Virus record (IMG/VR): IMGVR_UViG_3300030389_001511
Coordinates: 1 to 30,875 of that record
Origin: a virus
Length of the DNA: 30,875 nt
Reading direction: 5' to 3' (one strand)
Shown: positions 1,318 to 29,660 of the stretch, one piece after another
Numbering within the stretch: the stretch's first letter is position 1
Layout: every line of letters starts with the position of its first letter
The notes under the pieces: generated by a model
The model's input: only the letters and a program-made list of their open reading frames with translations
What the model was told of the DNA's origin: nothing
Databases searched by the model: none
Program-made: the position numbers and the translations under genes

Positions 1318-2376
1318 ATGAATGAACTAAACGAAACACTAACTGTAACACTAGAGCAAGCAGTACAACTTATCGTTAACAATCCAGACGTGCGCTTTAT
1401 GCTGCGCGGTGAGCCGGGCGTTGGTAAGTCTAGTATTGCTCAAGAAGTAGCACGTATCGCAGGCTTGCCACTGTGCATGGTGGACGTACCTAACCTTGAT
1501 CTTGGTGATGTGTGTATGCCAGTGATCGATCACGAGAGCAAGGTGACGAGGTATTATCCCAATGCCCGATTCGGTATTCATGGGGGACAGCCCGTTGTCT
1601 GGTGTCTCGACGAGTTTACCAAAGGCATGGAGCCGGTAAAGAACATGCTTCACCCTGCGCTAGAAGTATTTAAGCCCAGACTCGGTGACTTACCAATACC
1701 TGAGGGCAGCATCATCTATCTGACAGGTAATCTCGATACCGATGGGGTGGGCGATGGTCTGGCGCAACATACGAGGCAACGCATCGTCGAAGTTATCGTG
1801 CGTAAACCTACGTCTAAATTGTGGATACCGTGGGGCATCAACAACGGCATAGAGACTATCGTGCTAGCGTGGGTGGACAGGTATCCCCAGTGTCTAGCGT
1901 CCTACCTTGATGGCGTGAAGAACGAGTTTATCTTCCATCCGTCCAGTCCCGACGACAACGTGGTATCCCCGCGTATACTGGAGATTGCTAGTCGGATCAT
2001 CAAGAACCGTCACCTCTACGACGAAGAGGCACTACTGGCTGCGCTGACAGGTGCAGGTGGTGCGGCGTTTGCCAACAGCATCGTGTCGTTCATCCGGTTT
2101 CAAGATCAACTCCCGTCCGTTAAGACTATTGTGGATACGCCACAGGTTGCCGACATTCCGGACGATCCCGGTGCCAGGGCTGTTCTTACGTTCGGTCTGC
2201 TAGAGCATGTGGAGAAGGACACCCTGACCAACATCCTGAAATACCTGCGCCGAATGGAGGAAGAGTGGCAGGTCATCTTCTGCGTAGCACTTGCCAGACA
2301 TGAAACCAAGAAAGCAATCGCCTTTGCTAACCGTGAGTTTGCACTGTGGGCGGCTGATAACGAGGACTTACTGTAA
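1318..2376 (+). CDS. MoxR-like AAA+ ATPase (AAA_5 type)
   Basis: This is an AAA+ ATPase of the MoxR/AAA_5 type, 352 residues, the usual length. Visible motifs are Walker A GEPGVGKS (residues 31-38), Walker B VVWCLDEF (93-100, acidic pair D98-E99), the sensor-1 stretch YLTGNLD with N138, and a candidate arginine finger in HTRQR (151-155). The GAGGA ribosome binding site upstream of ATG 1318 is well placed. MoxR ATPases typically work with a VWA-domain protein as chaperone or remodelling pairs, often in metal insertion or complex activation. The next gene encodes just such a protein, which makes the pairing credible. What substrate a phage would remodel with it is unknown. Palindromes sit on both sides. 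Confidence 0.9.
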   Translation: MNELNETLTVTLEQAVQLIVNNPDVRFMLRGEPGVGKSSIAQEVARIAGLPLCMVDVPNLDLGDVCMPVIDHESKVTRYYPNARFGIHGGQPVVWCLDEFTKGMEPVKNMLHPALEVFKPRLGDLPIPEGSIIYLTGNLDTDGVGDGLAQHTRQRIVEVIVRKPTSKLWIPWGINNGIETIVLAWVDRYPQCLASYLDGVKNEFIFHPSSPDDNVVSPRILEIASRIIKNRHLYDEEALLAALTGAGGAAFANSIVSFIRFQDQLPSVKTIVDTPQVADIPDDPGARAVLTFGLLEHVEKDTLTNILKYLRRMEEEWQVIFCVALARHETKKAIAFANREFALWAADNEDLL

Positions 2377-2393
2377 GGTACGGATTCCGTACC
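2377..2393. repeat. Intercistronic palindrome, copy 3 (T-centred)
   Basis: GGTACGGATTCCGTACC starts directly after the TAA of the ATPase gene and is followed by TAGGAGA, the ribosome binding site of the VWA-like gene. Confidence 0.9.
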
Positions 2394-2405
2394 TAGGAGA
2401 TTAGA

Positions 2406-3644
2406 ATGAAAGTAGAACGTAGATTCAAAGCAATCAAGATCGGGTTGATGCGGTCAAAGGAGTTCGGGCTGTTGCAGGGCGTTGCCATGCATGGCAAGAC
2501 TTATCTGACTACTGACATACCCACAGCGATGACCAACGGCAAGGACTGTTGGTTCAACCCTGACTTCATCTTTGGCTTTGCCAACGGTGACAAGGCAGCG
2601 GCTTTCGTTATGGTGCACGAGTGGCTACACAAAGCAGGTATGCACTTCAGCACCTACCAGAGTCTGCACAAGATTAATCCGATGGTTACAAACATGGCTA
2701 CTGACCAGTGGATAAACAATCGGATTGTGCTTGCTGATCCCAAAAACCTGTTGACTGAAATGCCAGTGGACAAGAATGGAAAAATATGTGGCTTGCTTGA
2801 TCCCAAGTACAAGGACTGGGTGGTAAAGCGCATCTTCTACGACATACTCAAGCAGGAGGAAGAGGAAGAGCACGGGCACGGTGATGACGAGGGCCAACAA
2901 GAGGGACAAGGCTCAAGTTCGGGACAAGGACAAAGTGATGCAGGGTTCGATGACCATGATTGGGATGGGGCCGAGGAACTTAGCAAGGAAGAGAGGAAGG
3001 AACTCAAACGGGACATCACCGATGCTATCCGCAACAATCTTCATGCGGCTAACCGGATAGGCAGTGGAGGACTGAGTGATGCACTCGGACTCAACGAACT
3101 GGTTACGCCGAAGGTCGATTGGCGGGTGCAGCTACGCCAGTTTCTGAACTCGACATGTCGCAAGAAGGAACGCTCTTCATGGCGTAGACCGAACCGCAGA
3201 TATCTACATCAAGATATCGTTATGCCTACGCTAGAAGGTCAGAGCATCAAGTGTATGGTGCAGGCAAGAGACGCATCGTACTCGATGCACCACAAGGATC
3301 GTCTTGAACAGGCCACGAGCGAGATGGTGTCCATTGCTAATATGCTCGACATCGATCAGATACATGTCATTGATTGGGATGGCACTGCCGAGTATAGAGG
3401 GGTGTATACAAGTGACGAGTTGAAGAACGCTCCACCTATTAAAAACGTGGTAGGCGGGGGAGGTACTGACCCTCGATGTGTATCTGACTGTCTCAAGGAA
3501 AACGACATCAGGCCAGACTGTATGGTGATGCTGACTGATGGCGAGATAAACAACTGGGGTAACTGGACTATGCCAGTGCTCTGGGCAATCACCAACGATG
3601 TAAACATAACCGCCCCTGTGGGCAAATCAATCAACATTAATTAG
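2406..3644 (+). CDS. Metallopeptidase-like / VWA-like domain protein (DUF2201 type)
   Basis: This 412-residue protein has two parts joined by an acidic Gln/Gly/Ser-rich linker (about residues 150-195). The N-terminal part carries HEWLH (71-75), an HExxH zinc-peptidase signature in the setting of the DUF2201 N-terminal domain. The C-terminal part has a MIDAS-like DASYS (289-293, fitting DxSxS), a GGGGTDP turn and a TDGE strand end (about 377), as in VWA-like domains. The family assignment is from memory of its motif order. It follows the MoxR ATPase by 29 nt with one palindrome between, and a VWA protein is the usual partner of such an ATPase. Whether the HExxH site is active cannot be told from sequence. 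Confidence 0.85.
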   Translation: MKVERRFKAIKIGLMRSKEFGLLQGVAMHGKTYLTTDIPTAMTNGKDCWFNPDFIFGFANGDKAAAFVMVHEWLHKAGMHFSTYQSLHKINPMVTNMATDQWINNRIVLADPKNLLTEMPVDKNGKICGLLDPKYKDWVVKRIFYDILKQEEEEEHGHGDDEGQQEGQGSSSGQGQSDAGFDDHDWDGAEELSKEERKELKRDITDAIRNNLHAANRIGSGGLSDALGLNELVTPKVDWRVQLRQFLNSTCRKKERSSWRRPNRRYLHQDIVMPTLEGQSIKCMVQARDASYSMHHKDRLEQATSEMVSIANMLDIDQIHVIDWDGTAEYRGVYTSDELKNAPPIKNVVGGGGTDPRCVSDCLKENDIRPDCMVMLTDGEINNWGNWTMPVLWAITNDVNITAPVGKSININ

Positions 3645-4565: not shown

Positions 4566-5498
4566 ATGACTATTAGAGCAGTATACGATAAAGATCGCCA
4601 TGCAGTGGCTAACATAATAGCGAAACGAAAGGATAAAGATGTTGTTGGCTTCAGCAACATGCCTAGGAATGTATTGTGTCTACTACGCGGAATTGAAACG
4701 GAACCAGATGGTGGCTACGTTATCGAACGATACGACTACAAAGACTACATGCCTGAGTTCCTGTCTTACGTAGCACATCATAACCCGCATTATGAGTTTT
4801 GGGTTCGCGCAACTCCGGACGGGTATTTTGTTCACTGTATTGTAATGCAGGAGGATGAGCCGCTTGGTCGCATCGAAGCGCAGGACAGGTACGAGGGTTC
4901 TTGTACCTTCACTAACGAGCGCATCAGGCAGGATCAACAGCGTAATTCGTACAGGAAGACGACTAAACTTAATACTGCTAAAAACATATTCCGTCAATAC
5001 TTTTACGGGCGTACCGTGAAGGAATGCATGGAAGCTGTGGCAACGGATGTGAAAATGGCTATTAGTTCTCAAACCCATGCCGCGAAAACTAAAACTAATG
5101 CTGCACTAGCTACAGTTTCCGATTATGCCAAAGATCGACTGTTTCACCGCGATGCTACGTTTCTACAGTATTTGTCTGACGCAGGGATGGGTGGAGCCAT
5201 TGAAACCTACGACAAAGCAAAAGAAAACGAGGCAGTTGTGGCAAGGGTCGGACAAAACGTAAGTAACGCTAACGGGTACTACCTTATGAGGTACGGCCCT
5301 GAGTACATTAGATTTGATGCAACCATCGATCCAACGCCTACGAAACTCAAACCGGAGGATTTGTCGGACGAAGTGCGTATGGCATTGGGTCTACTCAAAG
5401 TGGCACCAAACGGATCGTTTGTTGATGGTGCAGGGTTCAAACTTGATGAAACACAATTCTTTATTAACAGCGAGGTGCAACTTGAATTTGACGACTGA
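4566..5498 (+). CDS. Hypothetical phage protein, 310 residues
   Basis: ATG 4566 lies 5 nt after AGGAGA. The product is a soluble mixed alpha/beta protein with no motif I recognise. The first third is rich in aromatic and charged residues (YVAHHNPHYEFWVRATPDGYFVHCIV), and the middle (about 130-210) is helical and Lys/Ala-rich. Its stop overlaps the start of the small ribbon-helix-helix ORF, so the two genes form one cassette between palindromes 5 and 6. No function is proposed. Confidence 0.75.
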   Translation: MTIRAVYDKDRHAVANIIAKRKDKDVVGFSNMPRNVLCLLRGIETEPDGGYVIERYDYKDYMPEFLSYVAHHNPHYEFWVRATPDGYFVHCIVMQEDEPLGRIEAQDRYEGSCTFTNERIRQDQQRNSYRKTTKLNTAKNIFRQYFYGRTVKECMEAVATDVKMAISSQTHAAKTKTNAALATVSDYAKDRLFHRDATFLQYLSDAGMGGAIETYDKAKENEAVVARVGQNVSNANGYYLMRYGPEYIRFDATIDPTPTKLKPEDLSDEVRMALGLLKVAPNGSFVDGAGFKLDETQFFINSEVQLEFDD

Positions 5499-5682
5499 GC
5501 CAATTAAGTACCGAGGTAAGCAGAAAGCGCCTACCCTGGTACATATAAACGTGCGTCTACCACAATACGTGGTAGACCATTTCAAATCGTACCCTAGTTA
5601 TACTCAAGAAATACGAAGGGTGCTAACTAACCATGTAGACAAGGTACGGAATCCGTACCTTGGGGAGAACGATGATGAGTAA
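5488..5682 (+). CDS. Small ribbon-helix-helix protein (BrnA-antitoxin-like)
   Basis: The frame has no ATG start. TTG 5488 (overlapping the previous stop; GAGGTG at 5472-5477 as ribosome binding site) gives 64 residues; TTG 5482 is an alternative. VHINVRLPQYVVDHF followed by YTQEIRRVLTNHV matches the strand-helix-helix pattern of ribbon-helix-helix DNA-binding proteins, most like BrnA antitoxins. No BrnT toxin is next to it, so a phage regulator is likelier than a toxin-antitoxin pair. The 3' end runs through palindrome copy 6 and past the start of the Nop/IS110-like gene by about 10 nt. Ribbon-helix-helix proteins bind palindromes, so it is a candidate for binding the seven copies of this operon; that is inference. 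Confidence 0.65.
   Translation: MTTEPIKYRGKQKAPTLVHINVRLPQYVVDHFKSYPSYTQEIRRVLTNHVDKVRNPYLGENDDE
5643..5659. repeat. Palindrome, copy 6 (A-centred), inside the RHH ORF
   Basis: GGTACGGAATCCGTACC, just upstream of the GGGGAGA ribosome binding site of the tas-like gene. It is the only copy lying within a coding frame, where it encodes the VRNPY part of the ribbon-helix-helix protein's tail. It marks the left edge of the tas-array cassette. Confidence 0.9.
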
Positions 5683-6541
5683 TCTAAAGACTATTGTGCG
5701 TGGAGCATACGACATACAAAAGAACCGCATCCAAACTGGTAACAGATTGGTAGCTAACTTCAAAGCGAAGCTAGGACAAGCACCCAGTGAGAAAGAAGAC
5801 ACCATCGATGCAGACGGGCAGCAAATACTGGCTAACCTTAGACGCTCGCATAAACTTCTGACCGAGGGCGTGGCTACGTTCCCACGGCAGGCCACGTTCA
5901 AGGGTGACGAGGTGATTAGCAGCTACACCGAGTTGTGCTTAGTAGCGAATTACCTAGAGCTTGAAGAGCAGGAGAAAACTCACTTTCGCAGATTGGGTAA
6001 TATTCTAAAAGACTACCCTATCTACAATAATTTTCTCGCTGGGGTTGTGGGCGTTGGCCCTGCGATGGCAGGTGTAGTTATCAGCGAGATTGATATTACT
6101 AAAGCTGAGTACCCGTCTAGCCTACACAAGTATGCGGGACTAGATGTTGCAGGCGATGGTCAAGGTCGTAGTCGAAGGAAGGAGCATCTCGAAGACAGCG
6201 AGTATGTTGATGCAGATGGAGTGGTGCAAACCAAGAAAGGTATCACGTTTAATCCTTTTCTAAAGACTAAGCTAGTAGGTGTACTAGGCAGTAGTTTCGT
6301 AAAGCAATCGCCTGACAAGTGTAAGTACCGCAAAGTGTATGATGACTACAAGCACCGGATTGAGAACATGGATGCGCACAAAGAAAAGTCAAAAGGTCAC
6401 AGACATAACATGGCGGTTCGTTATATGATTAAGATATTCTTGATCGACTTGTATAATGAATGGCGTGCCCTGGAAAGTTTGCCTGTTGCACCTACTTACA
6501 CAGAAGCAAAGCTAGGCAAGGTTCACGGTAAAGCTGCCTAA
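5672..6541 (+). CDS. tas: Tas-like RNA-guided DNA-binding protein (Nop / IS110 C-terminal-like domain, no nuclease domain)
   Basis: A 289-residue protein. ATG 5672 or 5675 follows GGGGAGA; 5675 has the better spacing. Residues 50-120 are helical. Residues 121-170 hold a helix-hairpin-helix (GVVGVGPAMAGVVISEID), then YPSSLHKYAGLD and GQGRSRR, the pattern of the Transposase_20 domain of IS110 and close to a Nop core (compare Nop58 KYPAS). Residues 194-265 are the helical end (NPFLKTKLVGVLGSS, MAVRYMIKIFLIDLYNEW). The IS110 RuvC-like DEDD domain is absent, and I see no HNH or RuvC motif. The gene ends 3 nt before an array of 36-bp units with paired 9-nt spacers. TIGR-Tas systems consist of just such an array plus a Nop-domain Tas protein. 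It is expected to bind 36-nt guide RNAs and bind DNA without cutting, unless a nuclease acts in trans. The alternative, an IS110 transposase remnant, is less likely because the frame is intact and the array is present. Confidence 0.85.
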   Translation: MMSNLKTIVRGAYDIQKNRIQTGNRLVANFKAKLGQAPSEKEDTIDADGQQILANLRRSHKLLTEGVATFPRQATFKGDEVISSYTELCLVANYLELEEQEKTHFRRLGNILKDYPIYNNFLAGVVGVGPAMAGVVISEIDITKAEYPSSLHKYAGLDVAGDGQGRSRRKEHLEDSEYVDADGVVQTKKGITFNPFLKTKLVGVLGSSFVKQSPDKCKYRKVYDDYKHRIENMDAHKEKSKGHRHNMAVRYMIKIFLIDLYNEWRALESLPVAPTYTEAKLGKVHGKAA

Positions 6542-6544
6542 GTA

Positions 6545-7200
6545 ATTGAGTCCGAGTAGATAAGACAACCATAGAAATCGAACGAGGCATGATAAACAAG
6601 ACAACCACTCGAAGATAACGAGTCACCAAATCCAAGACACCCAAGCGAATTTAACGAGTCGTTAAATCCAAGACAACCAAACGAGAATAACGAGTCATTA
6701 AAGAAAAGACAACCATTTACTGGAAACGAGTCAGCAATTCCGAGACAACCAAAGTCAAACAACGAGTCATGGGAAGAAAGACAACCAGATTTAATTAACG
6801 AGTCAAAAATCAGGAGACAACCAACGAAATTGAACGAGTCAGTGGCTAGAAGACAACCAAACGAGCATAACGAGTCATTCTATATAAGACAACCAATCTG
6901 GATGAACGAGTCAGCGATTCCAAGACAACCAAAAAGTAATAACGAGTCAAATGGAGTGATACACTCAACCGACTTAAGCGAGCCATGCAAATGAAGACAA
7001 CCAGTCAAAAATAGCGAGTCAGTATAACGGAGACACCCAATGAAAGATAACGAGTCAGTCGAGTTAAGACAACCATCGGGAATAAACGAGTCACACGTAC
7101 CAGACAACCATATAGTGTAGCGAGCCACAAAAAAATAAGACAACCATACATAGTAAACGAGTCAATATGAATTAGACACCCACTGAAAATAATCGCCCTA
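6545..7200 (+). repeat. TIGR-type array: 18 tandem 36-nt dual-spacer units (putative guide RNA precursor)
   Basis: The unit is AGACAACCA, 9 variable nt, AACGAGTCA, 9 variable nt, repeated every 36 bp. AGACAACCA-type copies start at 6563, 6599, 6635, 6671, 6707, 6743, 6779, 6815, 6851, 6887, 6923, 6959 (degenerate ATACACTCA), 6995, 7031, 7067, 7102, 7138 and 7174. AACGAGTCA-type copies lie midway; the outermost, at 6545 (ATTGAGTCC) and 7192 (ATCGCCCTA), are degenerate. That suggests AACGAGTCA is the edge repeat and AGACAACCA the central loop repeat of each guide. The 36 spacers form 18 pairs, A-rich and all different. The array starts 3 nt after the tas-like gene and ends before a palindrome and a terminator on the same strand, so it is probably co-transcribed. 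Processing to 36-nt guides is known for TIGR arrays; here it is inferred. Confidence 0.9.
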
Positions 7201-7206
7201 ACCTAA

Positions 7207-7223
7207 GGTACGGAATCCGTACC
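7207..7223. repeat. Palindrome, copy 7 (A-centred), right edge of the array cassette
   Basis: GGTACGGAATCCGTACC, 6 nt after the last array unit and 17 nt before the terminator stem. It is the last copy found in the window; none was noticed in the replication or virion modules. Confidence 0.9.
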
Positions 7224-7240
7224 TTTTAACCACCTTTTTA

Positions 7241-7263
7241 CCCCGCCTAGTGCGGGGTTTTTT
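7241..7263 (+). terminator. Intrinsic terminator of the accessory/TIGR operon
   Basis: CCCCGC, a CTAGT loop, GCGGGG and six T: a perfect 6-bp GC stem with a U-tract, closing the + strand operon after the array. Confidence 0.92.
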
Positions 7264-7268
7264 ATGTC

Positions 7269-7297
7269 TTTACAAAGTCCAATCTTTCCGCTATTCT
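7269..7297 (+). promoter_or_regulatory. Candidate sigma70-type promoter for the replication operon (possibly leaderless)
   Basis: TTTACA (7269-7274), 17-bp spacer, TATTCT (7292-7297), directly after the terminator. The hexamers match the consensus 5/6 and 4/6. The expected start point would fall at about 7304, the A of the next gene's ATG, which lacks a ribosome binding site. A leaderless transcript is therefore inferred. Confidence 0.5.
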
Positions 7298-7303
7298 TCC
7301 TGG

Positions 7304-7630
7304 ATGGCTCTCACCCCCGAAAAGAAAGTTAAGAATAAAGTCGTGCAATTACTCAAGGAGCACGGCGTTTACTATTTCTTCCCTGCTAGTTACGGCATGG
7401 GGCGTAGTGGGGTGCCAGATGTAGTTTGTTGTTTTCACGGGCACTTCCTCGGCATAGAATGCAAGGCTGGTAAGAACAAAGCAACACCACTACAGCTCAG
7501 AGAGCTTGCTGCTATCAGAGAAGCAGAAGGCACCACTTTTATCATTAACGAAGAGAACGTAGGGGTACTCGCTGAGTACCTAAAAGAATATGCAGACCCT
7601 GACCATCGATTTCGAGACGTACTACACTAG
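7304..7630 (+). CDS. VRR-NUC domain nuclease
   Basis: A 108-residue stand-alone VRR-NUC protein, the normal size for the phage forms. The motifs are GRSGVPDVV (catalytic Asp) and GIECKAGKNKATPLQ (E-x-K), the PD-(D/E)xK core, followed by a conserved helix and the IINEENV strand. ATG 7304 (MALTPEKKVKNKVV) is chosen because the family starts here; frames extending upstream would run into the terminator. There is no Shine-Dalgarno sequence before the ATG. In phages these are structure-specific DNA nucleases beside helicases and polymerases, thought to act in replication or recombination intermediate processing. The 3' end overlaps the DNA polymerase start by 41 nt. Confidence 0.9.
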   Translation: MALTPEKKVKNKVVQLLKEHGVYYFFPASYGMGRSGVPDVVCCFHGHFLGIECKAGKNKATPLQLRELAAIREAEGTTFIINEENVGVLAEYLKEYADPDHRFRDVLH

Positions 7631-17793: not shown

Positions 17794-17941
17794 ACCAGGG
17801 TGGTCGTTTTTCATCCCCTGTCTAAATGCTTCGGAGGTCAAGAAGATATTGATTGCGGAAACTAAGCGGCTTAAATACAAAGTGGTTACTAAAGTAGCCA
17901 TAGAAGATGGAGTGCGCGGTATTAGGGTGTGGAGAGTTTAA
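17747..17941 (+). CDS. Small hypothetical protein, 64 residues, last gene of the + operon
   Basis: ATG 17747 behind GGAAG gives MQIEKVDYQINWKNF and a basic alpha/beta protein with FKPGWSFFIPCLNA and a YKVVTKVAIEDGVRGIRVWRV end, like small phage proteins that follow replication genes. ATG 17726 is a longer alternative. It overlaps the primase gene by 47 nt in another frame. Its stop (17939-17941) overlaps the stop of the opposing virion gene. Confidence 0.7.
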   Translation: MQIEKVDYQINWKNFKPGWSFFIPCLNASEVKKILIAETKRLKYKVVTKVAIEDGVRGIRVWRV

Positions 17942-20900
17942 AGCGCACCGTAGTAATTAACGTCCTCAAGCCTGTCAAACAAGGGCACGAGGTTGCTAAA
18001 GAATCCTCTATTGAAGCGCACCCCTGCAAGGTACTCTTCCTCTTGAGAAGCACGAGACTTAAAAGAACGGCGTAGCGTATCGGCACTTATAAGGCCGGGG
18101 TAACGTGCATCTAATTTGAGTATGCGTTCTTCAGTTTCGCTAAACAAATCAGTGTCACCAGTTGTCAGAGCTAGATAGCGTCTTTTAAGCAGCTTACTCC
18201 TCGCCTCCATGACTTGATCTTCGTACTGCTTACCTAAAGCGCGTGTCTCGTACAGACTGGATATATTAGCAGGAGCAAACCCCAGTGCCTGCATATATAA
18301 GTTATAAGTGCTTATGTCTGTATCTATAGGGCGACCATCTATAGTCCTAGCGCCTTCTTGTGCAAAGCGCATTGTTTTAATTCCGTTGCGCAACCAACTG
18401 GGCGCGAGTGCTTCAAACCCTCTTTCAAATTCACCTTGTGCCAACAGACTAAACTTGTATGGTGCATCAAGCAGATAGTTACCCAGAGGGCCAAACGCTT
18501 GTAGAGCTATAGAATTAAGGTATCCGTACTTCTCTATTTCAAACGGGTCTTCTCTAAATAACATACCGTTAGCTACACTTGCTCTGTTGGATATCTCCAG
18601 ATTTGTAGCATAGTTAAGTGGCCCTTTAGTGACTGCTTCAGGCAGTATGAGCAGCATCTCGCGGCGTAGATTGAACGGTTCTTCATCGTCATCTAACAAA
18701 CTGTTTATCATGTTAGTTAACACAGATATGGCACCGAAGAACGGCAATCCAAACGCGCCCGCTATGGCGTAGCTCATACCAAAAGTGTAAGCAAGTTGCC
18801 GGAAGGCTTGTCCCCGACTTCGTTCTGATGAGCCTTTTATAGTATCTACAAAGGCTTTAGCCGTCACATAAGCACTCTGCCATATAAAACTCTTGAACGT
18901 AAACATTACACGGCCTATATCAGTTTGCATCCATCGGGGTGCAGTAGAAGCCATGCCTGATGTGTTTACGTCTTTTACTGTGCGAATTGCATATTCAACT
19001 GCCGCATCTTCGGTCATCCCATCAGCGCGTGCTAAATCGTATGCAGTTATAGCTGTGGTGGTTCTGTTATATCGTTCTGTTCTTTCGATAGGTATAGACA
19101 GAACATTTAAAAACTTTGCAGTGAGTCCGTTGTATTGTTCAGTTGTTTGACGAGCACCTTCTAATATTTCCCGTGCTAGCGTATGTCTAAGTTGCCCGTG
19201 GTCACGTAAACCATTGAATAATTCTACGTATCTGCCGTTTGCATATTCTGGAGTAGCCCATTTAGGCACACCCTCGGTTTTCATTATGTCTAGGATAGCT
19301 ACCCTACTAGCTTTAGTTAACGCTGCCGAAGTTTTAGGGCCACCAAACTTACCCGCCAGTATAGGAAATGTGAGCAAAGGCACAGAGCTTAGGTTAACAA
19401 GTCCTGAAGATATGTTACCTGACATGAACATGAGGTAACTACCAGTGGTAGATATTCTGGATGCAGTTCCAAACGTGGGGTCTAAGGTTCGTTCTTGCCT
19501 GTCCACAACACTTTGTGCAGCAGCGCGTATGTTCGGATTGTTAGCTCTTTCGCCTTGTCGCCTTACCTCTTTAAAGCCCTGTGAAATAAGACTGTTGTAC
19601 CTAGTATCTGCCATACTACGCGCCCATTTGACCATAGTATCGCCGTAGGCACGGACTAAATCTTCTGATGCCCCAGGCACGTCTTGCGCTTTTCTAAAAC
19701 TCTGTACTACAGAACTTTCAGGAAACAAATCAAGATAAGTGTTATACGTAGTGTCTACTAGATTTTTTATCTGACTAGCGTCCAGACCTTTAGCCGCACC
19801 ATCCGTTTTTATTGCATCTATTAAATCTGCAACAAAGCCTGACGGAACTAACGTGCTCATAGTGGCTTTTCTTATGCTATCTGCCGTAATATATTCGCCC
19901 ACTTGCAGTCTGGGACGTGTAGCTCCTTCAGCTTCTTCAGCCTCTAGGGTGCCTTGGTCTGAAGCATTTTGTATTCCTGAGTTTAAAGTCAGACCCAGAG
20001 CTTGTATTTCTCTATCTCTGGCCTTGCGTGTCTCAAAAGTTCTAACTGTGCGCTGTTTGGTGTTTTTGTCTACGTAAGTTAATACGTATTCTCCATAACG
20101 TCTAAACGGTATATATCCTGCTATAGGAGGATTTTCGTCAAATTTCTTTGTCATCCTGGCCCTGGCTTCTTTATCTAAAGAGCCAAGATAAAACTCTTTA
20201 TAATCTGCATACATTTTGTCGTAGTCTTTACGCATTACTTTGTATACATTTTGTACTTCCTTAGGTAGGCCGTTGAGTATACTTGTAAGCCTACCCAACT
20301 CTTTTTTCTGCTTTGCTTTTAATTTATTGTTTTTAGCGAAATCAGGGTCTAGTATGTCTACACGTGCTAACCTGGCATCGATAGCCATACTACCTAGCTT
20401 ACGCATAGCGGCAGGGAACTTGTTAAGCACCACCATCATTGCGTTGTATTTTTTGTTAGCGCTTTCTATCGCTTGTTCCTGATATCCCTGGCGCAGCTCC
20501 ACGTTATCTATTATTTTCTTTATGCCACTTAGCGGCTTGCGAAATAAATCGTATAAATTATCCAGACGCAAAAATCCGTAGGCTGCTACTTTTAAGTTAG
20601 CAGGTAGACTGTCTACTATTTTTTCAACTTCAGAAGGGTCTAATTTATCAAGTTTATTAAACTCTCCTTTCATAGCTTCGTCGGGACTTGCGTTAGCGAA
20701 AAATACTTTGCTCAGTGGAGGAGGTTCTATGGACGGGTCTATACTCAATATGCCGTCAACGAAAGTTACACCGACCTTGTAAGCATTTGTATTCTTATCA
20801 AGAGTAACGCCGAATAGTTCTAGTATGGAATCCATTATAGTCTTCCACATGCTGTCGCCTTTTGGCGGTTTTATAGTTTTCAATAAGTTTTGAAATTCTG

Positions 20901-23580
20901 AATTACTTACTAGCTCAGATACAAACTCATCAAGGGTAGTGCCACCATAGGCATCGCCCATCTGATCTTTTATTTGGCTAAAGAAAACAAAGAACGCTTT
21001 TGTTTCAGCAGAGTTGGGATCATTCAATCTACGTGCTAACGCTGCGTGTGCTAGCTCGTGTAAAAATACACTCGTGTTTAACCCTCTGTCTGGGTCAAGC
21101 GTTATAGTGTTTGCATCAGTATCGTATTTACCGGGGAACGGGCCTTCTACTGGTGCTATCTCTATCTTAGTATCTTGAGCCATCCTACGCATCTGGCGCA
21201 CTATGGGGCGTAAATCTTTAGGAAGAGTTTTAAGTATTTCTTCTATAGTAGCCTTTAGATTGCCGCGTTCTGCAATAGCAACGACATCAGGGTCTATATT
21301 TTTACCTTTGTCTTTGGTTTTTTGTATGCTTTCTGATGTAACTTCCGCAGCCGTTTCCTTGCCAATCTGCTCTTGTAATCTCTCTTCAAACTCTACACGG
21401 CTCTCAGTACCCACACGAGGTTTAGATTCAAGTCCCATACTGTTAAGGACTTTCTTTGTAGCTCTTTCTTCTCTTTTACGTTGACGATCAGGTGAAAAAG
21501 CGATTCCCGCTTTTCTTTTATCTATGGCGATACTTATAGCTTCGCTGGGTTTTTTATCCCCAATTCTAGCTTCAGCTCCTACGCTACGTTCTGAAGTTTC
21601 TTTAGGTTGTGGCCCCGGACTTCGTGCTAACCTTTCAGCACGAGCCTGTCCTATTATGGCGTCTACATGCCGTTGCTTGATTGCTTCTACTAAACCATCA
21701 AAACGCGCAACAGTGTCGGGGTCTAAATTGTTTCGTAAAAACGTAGCTGCACCGTCAATTTCAGCTTGCTGATTCTTTGTCCGTTGCGGCTGTAACCCTT
21801 CTTTTGCCCGCCCCATAGTTTTACTTATGCTGTCTGCGTCAGGGACATTTTCTTGGTTGGCTCGTCGGGCTGTTATTTCTGCTTCAGTTGTCTTTGCGTT
21901 AGTAGCTACGTCATACGCAAGATCAAACAAACCGTCAGTTATTGATTTTGTTGTTTCTTGCCGCCTCTGCCTTCCTTCCACTTCAGTTAGTTCAGTAAAA
22001 TAAGAAAGCGCTTTTTTACCGAACTCTGCCAAAGACATGTTCTGTAAAGAGGCAATAGTTCGTAACCCCGCTTCGGACAACGGTGTCGAATCGTTTTGTT
22101 CGTAAATATCGTTAAAACCAGTATCTGGAGCTATGCTACCAGTCGGTGGCCGCATTAATTGTTTTACTTCAAAATCAGATAAACCTTTTCTTGTAGCTTC
22201 TTTAGCTTGGTTTAATGCGTTTGCAGCTTTTTGTGCAGCACTAACTATATTGTTGTGCTCTTCTTCAGTTCTACCCAGTTCTTCTAGTACGGATGCTCTA
22301 GTCTCTGGAGAGGCTTCCTCTACTGTTTTAATCTCGTTTAATGTTTTTGTGTCTTCAGCTACTTCTAAGGCTGCGGTAAGTTGTTCAGAAGTTAAAGCAC
22401 TGGGGTCTTCTATAGTTACACCAGGTTCTTTGGGTGCAGCTTCTTCTGGGGTAGGCTCTGTGGTTGGAAGCACCGCAGCTATTTTGTTTGCCTCTCCCTC
22501 TAAGAAAGCAAACGCGTCCTTCTCGCTCATTGCACCTAGGTTAGCTACTCTACTGGCAGCACCGGAAATGGCACCTACAGGCGCACCGACTGCACCTTCT
22601 AACGTAGCTGCGGTTGCTACACCACGCCCTGTTGGTACATCAAAACCTTCTCTTTGCAGAGCTATGTTGCGTGTAAATTGTTCTTGTCCACCCTGTAGAG
22701 CTTCAGGTATGGCTTCTGATATAGCGGTGCGGGTAGCTTCACCGATAAGACCGCGCTTGGAAGCCTCTTCTATGGCCTCTTCTGAGATATCCTGGCCTAG
22801 CTTTCGTCCTATAGAACCTGTGAATACAGCCTTTTCCAGACCAAATCTAGCGGCAAGTCCTCCTAGAAAACCACCAAAGGCTATGTTATCCAGGTTATCT
22901 CCACCATACGCTTGTGCTTCTTTAGCAGCCGCTTTAGCCTGCTCTTCAGGCACTCCTGCGTTTGTTAATTCTTCAAGAACAGCACTGTAAGCCGCATCTT
23001 TAGTAATACCAACTCCGGTCAATACACCTAGCCCAGTACCCACAGCGGCTACAGGTGCGCCCCCTATACTGGCGGCAAGACTACCAAGTATCACAGGAGC
23101 AGATGTGCCAAAAGCATTTGCTATAAGATCAACAGGGGCAACGGTCAACGCCTGTACACCCGCTCTTATCTGCTCGCCAAGTCCTTTATCCTCGGCTTGC
23201 TGCATTATGCGAGCTACTTCTTGTTGGTCTCGTTTAGATTGGGCAGACAGGAGGTCATCAAGAACGTCTTCAACGCCGCTTAATTTTTGAGATACCGGAT
23301 TATCTGCACCGAATACATCGGTAAGGAAGCGGGTGCCTGTGACAGCACCCTTTACAAGTTGTGTAGGTACATCAAGGGCTTCTCTAAAAACACCCCGCTC
23401 TATGGGGCTAGCGTCAGGCAGGGGCTGAGTTGGGTCAACCGGAGGAGGCGTAAGATGACGTAAAGGAGCAATACCCGCATCCAGATCGAGCGCCATTTGA
23501 GCAAAACGCTTCGCATTAGCTGTATCGCCTAGCTCTTTAGCTTTGTTAAAGGCTTGAAGTGCTAAATCTAAGTCAGACAT
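17938..23580 (-). CDS. Large polyvalent internal virion protein with HELAH metalloprotease motif and LPD38-like C-terminus
   Basis: An 1880-residue protein. Residues 1-60 are Asp/Pro-rich. About 150-210 are Gly/Ala-rich and hydrophobic (VILGSLAASIGGAPVAAVG), suited to membrane insertion. A long Glu/Lys-rich helical region follows. VFLHELAHAALARR (about 838-851) is an HExxH zinc-protease signature. From about 1380 to the end the sequence resembles LPD38, the domain of large polyvalent phage proteins (LMFMSGNISSGLVNLSS, GRVMFTFKSFIWQ), with a hydrophobic stretch near 1600-1620. By analogy with T7 gp16-type proteins it may be ejected with the DNA and open the cell wall or membrane. No lytic transglycosylase motif was recognised. 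It is the last gene of the virion operon. Confidence 0.8.
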   Translation of the reverse strand: MSDLDLALQAFNKAKELGDTANAKRFAQMALDLDAGIAPLRHLTPPPVDPTQPLPDASPIERGVFREALDVPTQLVKGAVTGTRFLTDVFGADNPVSQKLSGVEDVLDDLLSAQSKRDQQEVARIMQQAEDKGLGEQIRAGVQALTVAPVDLIANAFGTSAPVILGSLAASIGGAPVAAVGTGLGVLTGVGITKDAAYSAVLEELTNAGVPEEQAKAAAKEAQAYGGDNLDNIAFGGFLGGLAARFGLEKAVFTGSIGRKLGQDISEEAIEEASKRGLIGEATRTAISEAIPEALQGGQEQFTRNIALQREGFDVPTGRGVATAATLEGAVGAPVGAISGAASRVANLGAMSEKDAFAFLEGEANKIAAVLPTTEPTPEEAAPKEPGVTIEDPSALTSEQLTAALEVAEDTKTLNEIKTVEEASPETRASVLEELGRTEEEHNNIVSAAQKAANALNQAKEATRKGLSDFEVKQLMRPPTGSIAPDTGFNDIYEQNDSTPLSEAGLRTIASLQNMSLAEFGKKALSYFTELTEVEGRQRRQETTKSITDGLFDLAYDVATNAKTTEAEITARRANQENVPDADSISKTMGRAKEGLQPQRTKNQQAEIDGAATFLRNNLDPDTVARFDGLVEAIKQRHVDAIIGQARAERLARSPGPQPKETSERSVGAEARIGDKKPSEAISIAIDKRKAGIAFSPDRQRKREERATKKVLNSMGLESKPRVGTESRVEFEERLQEQIGKETAAEVTSESIQKTKDKGKNIDPDVVAIAERGNLKATIEEILKTLPKDLRPIVRQMRRMAQDTKIEIAPVEGPFPGKYDTDANTITLDPDRGLNTSVFLHELAHAALARRLNDPNSAETKAFFVFFSQIKDQMGDAYGGTTLDEFVSELVSNSEFQNLLKTIKPPKGDSMWKTIMDSILELFGVTLDKNTNAYKVGVTFVDGILSIDPSIEPPPLSKVFFANASPDEAMKGEFNKLDKLDPSEVEKIVDSLPANLKVAAYGFLRLDNLYDLFRKPLSGIKKIIDNVELRQGYQEQAIESANKKYNAMMVVLNKFPAAMRKLGSMAIDARLARVDILDPDFAKNNKLKAKQKKELGRLTSILNGLPKEVQNVYKVMRKDYDKMYADYKEFYLGSLDKEARARMTKKFDENPPIAGYIPFRRYGEYVLTYVDKNTKQRTVRTFETRKARDREIQALGLTLNSGIQNASDQGTLEAEEAEGATRPRLQVGEYITADSIRKATMSTLVPSGFVADLIDAIKTDGAAKGLDASQIKNLVDTTYNTYLDLFPESSVVQSFRKAQDVPGASEDLVRAYGDTMVKWARSMADTRYNSLISQGFKEVRRQGERANNPNIRAAAQSVVDRQERTLDPTFGTASRISTTGSYLMFMSGNISSGLVNLSSVPLLTFPILAGKFGGPKTSAALTKASRVAILDIMKTEGVPKWATPEYANGRYVELFNGLRDHGQLRHTLAREILEGARQTTEQYNGLTAKFLNVLSIPIERTERYNRTTTAITAYDLARADGMTEDAAVEYAIRTVKDVNTSGMASTAPRWMQTDIGRVMFTFKSFIWQSAYVTAKAFVDTIKGSSERSRGQAFRQLAYTFGMSYAIAGAFGLPFFGAISVLTNMINSLLDDDEEPFNLRREMLLILPEAVTKGPLNYATNLEISNRASVANGMLFREDPFEIEKYGYLNSIALQAFGPLGNYLLDAPYKFSLLAQGEFERGFEALAPSWLRNGIKTMRFAQEGARTIDGRPIDTDISTYNLYMQALGFAPANISSLYETRALGKQYEDQVMEARSKLLKRRYLALTTGDTDLFSETEERILKLDARYPGLISADTLRRSFKSRASQEEEYLAGVRFNRGFFSNLVPLFDRLEDVNYYGAL

Positions 23581-26666: not shown

Positions 26667-29660
26667 CTAAGCTGGCATCATATTCATAGGGTTAATTTCT
26701 GGGCCTTGTCTAGTAGTCCCAGTGCGTTCATCACGCACCCTATCCATCATTGCGTATAATTCTTTTGCACCTGCATCTGAGTTGCCATTACCTAGATGAC
26801 TTACCACATCGGCAGGTATTACAAATTCTCCGTCACTCAAAGCGGCTGGCTGTGAACCCCCTATGGTAGCAGGTACAAGATCAGCCATTCCATCTGTGGC
26901 TCCTGCCAGATAGTTAGGGCCACCCAAAGAAGCTATGCCCCCCTGAGCCATACCTTCAGCTTCTTGGAGCCTAGCTGTAGCTTCTTCCCTAGCTTTTATT
27001 TGGTTTAAAAGCTCTGGATTTCTTTCCATAAATCTTCTTCTAAGCTCTTTGTCCCCCAAAAACTGTTCTATGAATGTAGACCCCGGTACAATAATCTTCT
27101 CACCTGTATCCGGATCGACGGCGACAACTCTGTCAAATGTTCCCTCTTCACCCATAAAGTCCCTAAGCCCTTCTAGGAAAGTTCTTTCTCCTTGTCTTCT
27201 CCTAAGGCGTTCCAGATAATCTGTTTCTCGTTGGAATTCCTTAGTCCTAGGATCAGGTGGCCCCATAGTAGGGCGGTTGGAAAGAGTTGTGGACATGGGG
27301 TTAAATTGTGGATTGTCGGAGGACTTTCCCATGTCGTCGAATAGGAGCCTGCCACCCTCTCTATATCCTGGCACCTGCGCCCTACGTAAATAGTCCGTAA
27401 CTTCTTCTACGGTGATATTTTTATACTCTGGATATGCAGGATTATTACCGAAGTAATCCACTATCTCTTGAGGGTTCGTCCGACCTTGCGCTGCAAGCTC
27501 TACTATTAACCCTGGTACACCGCCGGTATACCCCAAAGATTCAATTACTTGCTCTGGCGTTTGATAATTACCGCGTAGCAATTCTTCGATTACGTCACCT
27601 GTTGAGACACCAAACCGCCCTGCGGCTTTGGGTATAGTTGTTTCTCCGGACGCTATTGCTTCTGCAACTATATCGCGTTCTCCAGAAGTGTACTCACCAT
27701 CTACAGGTATTGCCTCGTAAGGTGTAGGTGGAGGTGGAGGCGGAGGCTGTACGACCACAGGTTGAGTCGCTGGTTGAGTAACTGGTTGAGCCACTGGTTG
27801 AGTAACTGGTTGAGCCACTGGTTGAGTAGCTGGTTGAGCCACTGATTGAGCCGCCGGTTGAGCACCTGTTAGCACATCTATCGCATCTGCGGATGTGTCC
27901 GCTGGTGTAGATGCTGCAAACGCTTCCGTGTCCAGTTCTGGAGTTGTAGCTGCTACAGCAGGAGCAGGGACTCCGATTCCTTGTAATACACCCTGTGTTT
28001 CTCCAGTGGGCACAAAGCGTGTATCTGTAAAATATCTGCGACCCATAGACCCCGGACGACGATCTGTCTGGTCAAAAGCATTGGGTAATAAACTACGCTG
28101 TGCAGTGTAATCAGGAATTCCACCTTGATATCCCGCAGGCTGCTGCTCATCGTCATCTAGTAACCCGAACAACCCGCCCAGAGCACTGGTAAGAAGAGCG
28201 GGCGCATTGTCAGATACAAACTGGCCCAGTTTGCCCCGCACTCCGGTGTTTCCGCTACTACCGCTCAGTCCGCTAGGTGTGTCATAGGAGTAAGCACCTA
28301 AGCTCGCAAGATAGGGGTCTTGTACCTTGTCACCAGTGTTAAATTTCTTCACTTGTCCACCTTCTGCGGCACGTTGCCGTTGGCTTCGTTTAATCAACTC
28401 CCCTAAATACTCGGGTATTATACTGTCGCTAGAAATATCATACAGCCCTGGTATGTCCACCAAAGGCCCAGGCTCTACAGTTACTGTTCGTGTGCCTCCG
28501 ATCTGTGTGCTACCACTACCACCGCCTCCACCAGCCGGAGAAGGAGAAGAAGAAGTTAGTTCAGCGGCTGTCTTTATCTCCGGCGCGGGTGTATCGTATC
28601 CACCAGCCACCGCTGGTAAACCTCCCAAGTCTGTTAATATTTTCTCTATTTCAGAGTCAGGCAGTGGTGTTCTGGCTACCGCAGATTTTTCTGCACTTGG
28701 TAGTCCTGTTCTAGTAATAGCAGGAGTCTCCGCACCTGGTAATCCTGTTCTAGGCACTGGGGGCAGTTCATCACCAGTAGACGCTCCTACAACAGAAGTT
28801 GTGTCAGGAGTTGTGTCAGGAGTTGTCAAAACATCTACAGCATCTGTTACTTTTGTATTGTCAGCTCCTGGCGTGAGGTCAACATCAAATAAACCAGTGC
28901 CTTCAGTGTCTTCTGCTGCGCTAAGGACTTGAACACCAGCTTTACCTACGTTGCTAATGGCGTCAGTAATTTGTCCCATGTCAGCGCCAGCAGGTAAATT
29001 TAACGCCTCTCTGGCAGCTTCTTGTATAACTACAGTGCTTATTTCTCCCAAGTCGGGCACTGTAGCTCCACCTGTCAAAATACCGAAAATTCTATTAACC
29101 GCAGCATCAAGAAAGGGATTATTCGTAGATATACCTGTTTGAGTCCCCAAAGGAGTGGTTCCGGTGTTTATAACTGGACTACCACTAGTTTGACCGTATA
29201 CAACGGTGGCTGCACTTTGTCTGGGTTTTCCTATTACTTTAGTAGGGGGTGGCAGATTTAAAACTTTAAATATCTTGTCTACCAGCTTGCGAGCTTCTGC
29301 ACCTAGCCCTTGCACTGCGCCGACGGCCGTTTGCACAGGAGTGCTATCTATAATAGCGTCTAGCACGGCTTGACCAGGATTAGCAGCAGACATACTAGCG
29401 GGGTTAAAGGCGGTGCTCCCAGGTGCAAACTGATTAGCCAGCTCTATATCATTATCTGGTATAAACGACTCTTTCTTAAAGACATTTTGTTTTTCCATGT
29501 CTCTAAGTCCTAGCGCATTAAAAAGTTGATTTTGCTCGCTAAAAGTTAACGGGTCAGGCTCAAATAAAGTACCAGACTGTTGACCCTCGCCCTTTATACG
29601 GTAAACGCCTGCACCGGGGCCAATTAACTGTTCTAATGTTGTTTGTTCTTCGTCAGCCAT
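26667..29660 (-). CDS. Large low-complexity virion protein with Pro-Val-Thr-Gln repeats
   Basis: 997 residues. The N-terminal 330 residues are Thr/Gly/Asp-rich. The central region holds a run of PVAQ/PVTQ tetrapeptides and then eight consecutive prolines. A helical part (EQVIESLGYTGGVPGLIVEL) follows. The C-terminus has QGGIASLGG and SDGEFVIPADVVSHLGNG, a conserved block I know from marine phage virion proteins. The domain order suggests a long flexible internal or tail component. GTAGGTAGGA precedes the ATG. Exact function is not known. Confidence 0.75.
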   Translation of the reverse strand: MADEEQTTLEQLIGPGAGVYRIKGEGQQSGTLFEPDPLTFSEQNQLFNALGLRDMEKQNVFKKESFIPDNDIELANQFAPGSTAFNPASMSAANPGQAVLDAIIDSTPVQTAVGAVQGLGAEARKLVDKIFKVLNLPPPTKVIGKPRQSAATVVYGQTSGSPVINTGTTPLGTQTGISTNNPFLDAAVNRIFGILTGGATVPDLGEISTVVIQEAAREALNLPAGADMGQITDAISNVGKAGVQVLSAAEDTEGTGLFDVDLTPGADNTKVTDAVDVLTTPDTTPDTTSVVGASTGDELPPVPRTGLPGAETPAITRTGLPSAEKSAVARTPLPDSEIEKILTDLGGLPAVAGGYDTPAPEIKTAAELTSSSPSPAGGGGGSGSTQIGGTRTVTVEPGPLVDIPGLYDISSDSIIPEYLGELIKRSQRQRAAEGGQVKKFNTGDKVQDPYLASLGAYSYDTPSGLSGSSGNTGVRGKLGQFVSDNAPALLTSALGGLFGLLDDDEQQPAGYQGGIPDYTAQRSLLPNAFDQTDRRPGSMGRRYFTDTRFVPTGETQGVLQGIGVPAPAVAATTPELDTEAFAASTPADTSADAIDVLTGAQPAAQSVAQPATQPVAQPVTQPVAQPVTQPATQPVVVQPPPPPPPTPYEAIPVDGEYTSGERDIVAEAIASGETTIPKAAGRFGVSTGDVIEELLRGNYQTPEQVIESLGYTGGVPGLIVELAAQGRTNPQEIVDYFGNNPAYPEYKNITVEEVTDYLRRAQVPGYREGGRLLFDDMGKSSDNPQFNPMSTTLSNRPTMGPPDPRTKEFQRETDYLERLRRRQGERTFLEGLRDFMGEEGTFDRVVAVDPDTGEKIIVPGSTFIEQFLGDKELRRRFMERNPELLNQIKAREEATARLQEAEGMAQGGIASLGGPNYLAGATDGMADLVPATIGGSQPAALSDGEFVIPADVVSHLGNGNSDAGAKELYAMMDRVRDERTGTTRQGPEINPMNMMPA
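27759..27863. repeat. 12-bp tandem repeat encoding PVTQ/PVAQ
   Basis: About eight or nine imperfect copies of a 12-bp unit (GGTTGAGTAACT / GGTTGAGCCACT on the + strand) lie inside the 997-residue gene and encode Pro-Val-Thr/Ala-Gln on the minus strand. In-frame units mean copy number can change without breaking the gene. Confidence 0.85.

What the first reader, a model, noticed from the sequence alone, without database searches (positions are those of the whole stretch)
5643..7263. Complete nuclease-less TIGR-Tas RNA-guided system in a phage genome
Seen: an intact 289-residue Nop/IS110-C-terminal-like protein with a 36-bp-periodic array starting 3 nt behind it. Each unit holds two different conserved 9-mers and two 9-nt spacers, and an intrinsic terminator on the same strand follows. 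Known: TIGR-Tas systems (reported in 2025 by Faure and colleagues) pair a Nop-domain Tas protein with arrays processed into 36-nt guides carrying two tandem spacers, and occur in phages. Inferred: this is a new instance of the type without HNH or RuvC domain, so it probably binds DNA, for example to silence a competing element or regulate genes, rather than cutting it.
Basis: partly seen in the sequence, partly recalled or inferred. Interest (0 to 1): 0.95.

Follow-up and report, generated by a model that had tools for sequence, protein, structure and literature searches.

The report
Phage RNA-guided TIGR-TasA cassette
A phage carries a known kind of small RNA-guided DNA-binding system (TIGR-Tas, without a cutting domain); closely related phages carry nearly the same protein with almost completely different guide sets, which makes the unanswered question of what these guides aim at testable.

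Summary
Window 5672-6541 encodes an intact 289-aa Nop/IS110-C-terminal-type protein. An array of 18 units (6545-7195) follows 3 nt later: two alternating 9-nt repeats (edge AACGAGTCA, loop AGACAACCA), 9-nt spacers, truncated edges at both ends, then a terminator. It is a TIGR-Tas locus of the nuclease-less TasA type: NCBIfam TIGR_Tas_endo 118.7 bits (cut-off 100), the 11 best PDB fold matches are all TasH/TasR, and edge-repeat base pairs covary as in the TasR structure. TasA in phages was described in 2025, so this is a new member of a known kind. What the comparison adds: 103 related loci, 98 with arrays, 1,189 distinct guides. The cassette is horizontally mobile: tas is 88% identical in phages whose DNA polymerases are only 54-78% identical, at three different positions. 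Guides are replaced quickly: phages with 98.7% identical tas share 7 of 26. Turnover is colinear and unpolarised, and the two spacers mostly travel together. No self or sibling-phage targets exceeded chance. The most widely shared guide (not in this window) reads as an exact 18-bp two-strand target equal to a tRNA D-arm, a promising but unproven lead. Binding without cutting is inferred; the biological role remains open.

The parts
5672..6541 (+). tasA: 289-aa solo Nop-domain (TasA-type) protein, no nuclease domain; stop at 6539-6541
   Evidence: ORF; NCBIfam NF052498 TIGR_Tas_endo 3.3e-34, above cut-off; phrog_4285 1.2e-35; profile vs PDB: TasR 2.8e-19, TasH 9e-15; AlphaFold model pLDDT 78.7 with the 11 best PDB fold matches all TasH/TasR
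6545..7195 (+). TIGR array: 18 loop repeats (AGACAACCA consensus) alternating with edge repeats (AACGAGTCA consensus), 18 pairs of 9-nt spacers, 36-nt period, truncated edge at each end
6545..6553 (+). 5'-truncated/degenerate edge repeat (ATTGAGTCC) opening the array
   Evidence: matches the published rule that arrays open with a 5'-truncated edge
6698..6724 (+). guide unit 5: spacer A TTAAAGAAA (6698-6706), loop 6707-6715, spacer B TTTACTGGA (6716-6724); the only guide of this window also found whole in another array (L006)
6959..6967 (+). degenerate loop repeat (ATACACTCA)
7192..7195 (+). 3'-truncated edge repeat (ATCG) closing the array
   Evidence: published rule
7240..7264 (+). intrinsic terminator (stem ACCCCGC/GCGGGGT, loop 5, T run)
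5641..5661 (.). 21-bp palindrome AAGGTACGGAATCCGTACCTT immediately before the tas ribosome-binding site; same palindrome precedes other early genes
7205..7225 (.). second identical palindrome, between array and terminator, closing the cassette

Best explanation
This is a complete TIGR-TasA locus in a tailed phage, carried as a mobile cassette in the early operon. The array RNA is made with or just after tasA, is cut within the edge repeats into about eighteen 36-nt tigRNAs, and each loads into a TasA dimer. The two 9-nt spacers pair with opposite strands of one 18-bp DNA site (reading 5'-A-rc(B)-3'). Lacking HNH or RuvC, TasA binds and bends the site without cutting, and so probably blocks transcription or replication of another genetic element. 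Shown here: protein family, absent nuclease, array anatomy, covarying edge pairs, mobility, fast guide turnover. Inferred from characterised relatives: processing, dimerisation, two-strand DNA binding. Inferred only: that the biological job is competition with other elements in the same cell rather than regulation of the phage's own genes.
For: NCBIfam TIGR_Tas_endo 118.7 bits vs cut-off 100; PDB profile matches to TasR 2.8e-19 and TasH 9e-15 only; fold search: 11 of 11 hits at E<=1e-3 are TasH/TasR, IS621 next at 3.8e-3. The predicted N-terminal half is all-helical, so there is no RuvC-type fold, and Pfam gives only a weak, sub-cut-off Transposase_20 match. Array anatomy fits the published definition in detail. 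Edge positions 2-7 covary (A-T 463, G-C 427, G-T 364, A-C only 45) and so do 3-6 (C-G 1083, T-A 137, C-A 41), like the box C/D pair and the extra pair of the TasR edge repeat. Arrays sit beside 98 of 103 tas relatives and beside none of 94 siblings without tas. FpTasA, also nuclease-less, binds 36-nt array RNA. Guides do not match their own or sibling phages beyond chance, which argues against self-regulation. Guide turnover far exceeds gene divergence, as expected if targets change quickly.
Against: No RNA or binding data. No target of any of the window's 18 guides was identified; the one searched in all viral contigs had two unrelated hits. The box D motif differs from the TasR 'UG' (here the repeats begin A[A/G]). 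Hits among rival phages were at chance level in the 1.7 Mb searched, so competition is not demonstrated.
Confidence: 0.8

Rival explanations
1. TasA uses its guides to take over or exploit the host: conserved guides direct it to host (or phage-borne) tRNA genes, for example to silence them or to mark them as sites for integration, while the fast-changing guides serve another purpose.
For: The most widely shared guide of this clade (in the L003, L004, L006, L011 and L014 arrays) has the composite target ATAGCTCAG+TTTGGTTAG. 18 of the 20 viral-contig loci with this exact 18-mer lie in tRNA genes, mostly tRNA-Ile(GAT), and all 3 occurrences in 297 Bacteroidota genomes do too. Its two variants also keep the D-arm invariants, and the match exists only in the published inward two-strand geometry. 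Letter shuffles give 0.06 D-arm-like hits per 1,265 guides, about 5e-5 for one named guide.
Against: It is one guide family out of 1,189, noticed after the fact; over all guides p is about 0.06 (0.2 hits expected with permuted pairings). The window's own array lacks it. The tRNA library was partly selected by the same 18-mer. No tyrosine integrase was found in this phage group (fragments), and rRNA operons gave no excess of matches.
Confidence: 0.2
2. TasA is an RNA-guided regulator of the phage's own genes.
For: The cassette lies within the co-directional early operon, and a non-cutting DNA binder is suited to regulation.
Against: No guide of the window or its siblings matches the carrier phage at 0-1 mismatches more often than permuted guides do; guides are not conserved between phages with near-identical genes. 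The window is a fragment, so the rest of the genome could not be checked.
Confidence: 0.1
3. The protein is a decayed IS110-family transposase and the array an unrelated repeat.
For: PHROG labels relatives 'transposase' and Pfam Transposase_20 matches weakly.
Against: NCBIfam transpos_IS110 scores 18.6 bits vs a cut-off of 140; no DEDD domain, no element ends; arrays co-occur with 98 of 103 relatives and covary as tigRNA repeats.
Confidence: 0.01

Closest known systems
TIGR-TasA (dual-repeat type; e.g. Flavonifractor plautii FpTIGR; Faure et al. 2025, PMC12045711)
   Same: Solo Nop-domain protein, adjacent dual-repeat array with 9-nt spacers, truncated edges at both ends, terminator, phage context, 36-nt period.
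   Different: Guide dynamics across related phages are measured here (not in the published main text). No parB-like partner gene was identified beside it. The repeat sequences of FpTIGR could not be compared, and whether this clade is listed in their table S1 could not be checked (supplements not readable here).
TIGR-TasR (TaTasR, PDB 9mty)
   Same: Nop and coiled-coil fold, box C/D-like repeat pairing, two-strand targeting (the last inferred here).
   Different: No RuvC domain here; 'UG' box D replaced by A[A/G] at the repeat start.
TIGR-TasH (Salicola phage SpTIGR and the TasH of PDB 21kl, 9w04)
   Same: Closest fold match; SpTIGR is also phage-borne.
   Different: No HNH domain here; 9-nt spacers rather than the 16-nt total of SpTIGR.
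IS110/IS621 bridge-RNA recombinases
   Same: Shared Nop-like RNA-binding half.
   Different: No DEDD recombinase domain, array of many guides instead of one bridge RNA.

Membership tests
TIGR-Tas (dual-repeat) | Nop-domain Tas protein | tested here: met
   NCBIfam NF052498 above cut-off; fold matches TasH/TasR; profile hits
TIGR-Tas (dual-repeat) | Adjacent array of two alternating 8-12-nt repeats separated by ~9-nt spacers, 36-nt period | tested here: met
   same in 98 of 103 relatives
TIGR-Tas (dual-repeat) | Truncated edge repeats at both ends and a following rho-independent terminator | tested here: met
   rule
TIGR-Tas (dual-repeat) | Box C/D-like motifs and covarying edge-repeat pairs | tested here: met
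   CCA/TCA ends; pairs 2-7 and 3-6 covary; the box D letters differ from TasR
TIGR-Tas (dual-repeat) | Array processed into 36-nt tigRNAs bound by Tas | not testable with these tools
   needs small-RNA sequencing
TIGR-Tas (dual-repeat) | Tandem-spacer targeting of both DNA strands | tested here: inconclusive
   No excess of targets in relatives; one shared guide fits a tRNA D-arm only in the inward geometry
TasA subtype | No HNH or RuvC nuclease domain | tested here: met
   289 aa, all-helical N-terminal half; no nuclease family hit in Pfam, PHROGs or PADLOC; NCBIfam's only hits are the Tas model (named 'endonuclease' for the family) and a sub-cut-off IS110 model
IS110 transposase | Full-length IS110 recombinase with DEDD domain | tested here: not met
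   18.6 bits vs cut-off 140; only the C-terminal half matches Pfam, below cut-off
TasParB-associated TasA | parB-like gene in the same operon | tested here: not met
   Neighbours at 4566-5498 and 7250-7630 are a protein with no Pfam or PHROG match and a phage endonuclease family member

The most novel reading that the evidence does not exclude
TIGR-TasA guides have tRNA genes as a natural target class: the most widely shared tigRNA of this phage clade pairs its two spacers with the two strands of a tRNA D-arm. If so, this would be the first natural target of a TIGR system that I know of, pointing to host takeover, tRNA-bearing rival phages or tRNA-site integration.
Probability: 0.25. Interest if true: 0.88.

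Novelty: new member of a known kind. Interest (0 to 1): 0.55.

Why it matters
Faure et al. state that natural targets of TIGR guides and the way arrays gain guides are unknown, partly because most loci sit on isolated metagenomic contigs. This window is the entry to a clade in which near-identical phages carry different guide sets. It gives 1,189 distinct guides in 98 arrays, pairs of phages in which guide replacement can be read unit by unit, many sibling phages without the cassette as controls, and one testable candidate target (a tRNA D-arm).

Tried and rejected
Self or sibling targets: 1,146 guides vs 1.68 Mb of non-redundant related phage DNA in four geometries with gaps 0-2; equal to within-array permutations (earlier runs, looked mildly suggestive before redundancy was removed). 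rRNA targets: two guides matched E. coli 23S with one mismatch, but 18 rrn loci (E. coli plus 17 others) gave no excess over permutations. Unit 26 (TTTAAGGCA/ACTTGGTCT; L010 variant): its 18-mer lies in the same site of a family-B DNA polymerase gene in 7 phage contigs (family read from the sequence), but one matched gene family is what chance allows for a degenerate 18-mer, so it is kept as a lead only. Codon periodicity of changes between related guides: none (spacing mod 3 = 99/110/90), so no sign that guides track third-codon changes of protein-coding targets. CRISPR-like polarity: none (shared units spread 11/11/18/17/16 over array fifths). IS110 transposase: rejected.

Full report
Observation. 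The region reads as described. An ORF of 289 codons (5672-6541) ends 3 nt before a 36-nt-periodic array. A parser with edge and loop profiles finds 18 loop repeats (consensus AGACAACCA) and matching edge repeats (consensus AACGAGTCA), with 18 pairs of mostly 9-nt spacers, from 6545 to 7195. Which repeat is the edge follows from the ends: the array opens with a 5'-truncated and closes with a 3'-truncated copy of AACGAGTCA, the published rule for edge repeats. A good terminator follows at 7240-7264. The same parser finds nothing in shuffled sequence and nothing in 94 loci (1.08 Mb) of sibling phages without the gene.

Identity. NCBIfam's TIGR_Tas_endo model matches above its curated cut-off. A profile of 27 relatives matches only TasR and TasH in the PDB. 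The AlphaFold model (pLDDT 78.7) has TasH and TasR as its 11 best fold matches, then IS621. The N-terminal half is helical and no nuclease domain is found, so this is the TasA type. PHROGs calls the family 'transposase', which is probably how such genes are usually annotated. Edge-repeat positions 2-7 and 3-6 covary over 98 arrays, as expected for the box C/D pair and the additional pair seen in the TasR structure. Membership in TIGR-Tas is therefore firm; RNA processing and DNA binding are inferred from characterised relatives, including the nuclease-less FpTasA.

Relatives and mobility. Searches gave 41 close and 61 further loci from viral contigs and MAGs, 103 with the window; the wider viral search reported 197 relatives in all. 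98 of the 103 loci held have a dual-repeat array, some upstream, some on both sides. In the 87-90% clade the cassette sits at three kinds of position: before the VRR-NUC-like gene (window, L003, L006, L011, L014), between that gene and SNase (L002, L004), or after the DNA polymerase (L009, L012, L013, L015, L017). TasA amino-acid identity to the window stays near 88% where DNA polymerase identity is 54-78%, and most phages with the closest polymerases (75-81%) lack it. The cassette therefore moves between phages. L119, which shares the window's palindrome, has no tas and only one palindrome at the corresponding place, consistent with an unoccupied site.

Guide turnover. Only one of the window's 18 guides occurs whole in another array. 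L003 and L006 have 98.7% identical tas (100% at protein level) and 98.2% identical polymerases but share 7 of 26 guides; L002/L004 (98.3%) share 5 of 15; L009/L016 (97.0%) share 3 of 13; L001/L010 (95.9%) share 1 of 9. Over 14 related pairs, 73 units are shared with both spacers and 29 with one spacer only (chance about 0.4), order is kept (291 of 305 comparisons), and shared units show no bias to either end. So arrays change by replacing whole A-loop-B units, sometimes half units, throughout the array and without the end polarity of CRISPR adaptation. No adaptation gene is in evidence; the mechanism is unknown.

Targets. From the published 8-nt 3' overhang and the C-5 rule I derived that the composite target reads 5'-A-rc(B)-3'. 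Against 1.68 Mb of non-redundant related phage DNA, true guide pairs match no better than permuted pairs or other geometries, and rRNA operons give no excess. The most widely shared guide of the clade, however, gives ATAGCTCAGTTTGGTTAG, a tRNA D-arm: 18 of 20 viral-contig loci with the 18-mer are tRNA genes, as are 3 of 3 in Bacteroidota genomes, and only the inward geometry fits. For that one guide chance is about 5e-5; over all guides about 0.06. I treat this as a lead. The window itself does not carry this guide.

Mechanism and verdict. The best-supported account is RNA-guided, two-strand DNA binding by a TasA dimer without cleavage, carried as a horizontally exchanged phage cassette with fast-changing guides, most plausibly acting on other elements in the cell. 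Identity is close to certain, the binding mode likely, the role open. The system is a new member of a known kind (PMC12045711); its value is the comparative set it opens.

Noticed in passing
window 182, 1278, 2375, 3642, 4534, 5641, 7205; L124, L129, L106, L081, L086, L092, L098, L130, L140: Each phage of this family has its own 18-23-bp palindrome, repeated about 2-12 times, typically just after the stop and 7-34 nt before the start of early genes, at homologous positions but with a different sequence in each lineage (window AGGTACGGATTCCGTACCT; L124 AGATATCTACAGATATCT; L081 GCGTACGGCTGCCGTACGC; L086 AACATTGAATATTCAATGTT; and others). This resembles a set of operators or hairpins co-evolving with a lineage-specific trans factor, and the sites bracket exchangeable gene cassettes.
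   Followed up: partly
L003:7570-7616, L006, L011, L014 and L004 arrays: The tRNA-D-arm guide sits in an atypical unit (11-nt edge AACGAGTGCCA, loop GCACAACCA) and is the most widely shared guide of the clade.
   Followed up: partly
L010:7286; L276, L278-L283: The L010 guide TTGAAGGCA/ACTTGGTCT matches exactly one site of a family-B (gp43-like) DNA polymerase gene in 7 phage contigs; may be chance.
   Followed up: partly
L033:6001-7023; L180, L191, L211: tas matches that are longer than usual; in L033 a stretch of about 50 residues is inserted near the conserved AGLD motif, possibly an extra domain or intein remnant.
   Followed up: no
L031:4310-5941; L033, L191, L205, L211, L216: Very long array (45 guides) upstream of tas in L031, and arrays on both sides of tas in the other loci.
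   Followed up: no
window 17938-23580 (-): 1880-aa protein resembling DarB-like antirestriction and polyvalent proteins (PHROG 1.4e-60; weak LPD39).
   Followed up: no
window 27755-27863: 12/24-nt tandem repeat inside the 997-aa protein gene (TRF).
   Followed up: no
window 1318-3644: AAA (MoxR-like) ATPase followed by a DUF2201 metallopeptidase/VWA protein, a pair kept in the early operon of most siblings.
   Followed up: no
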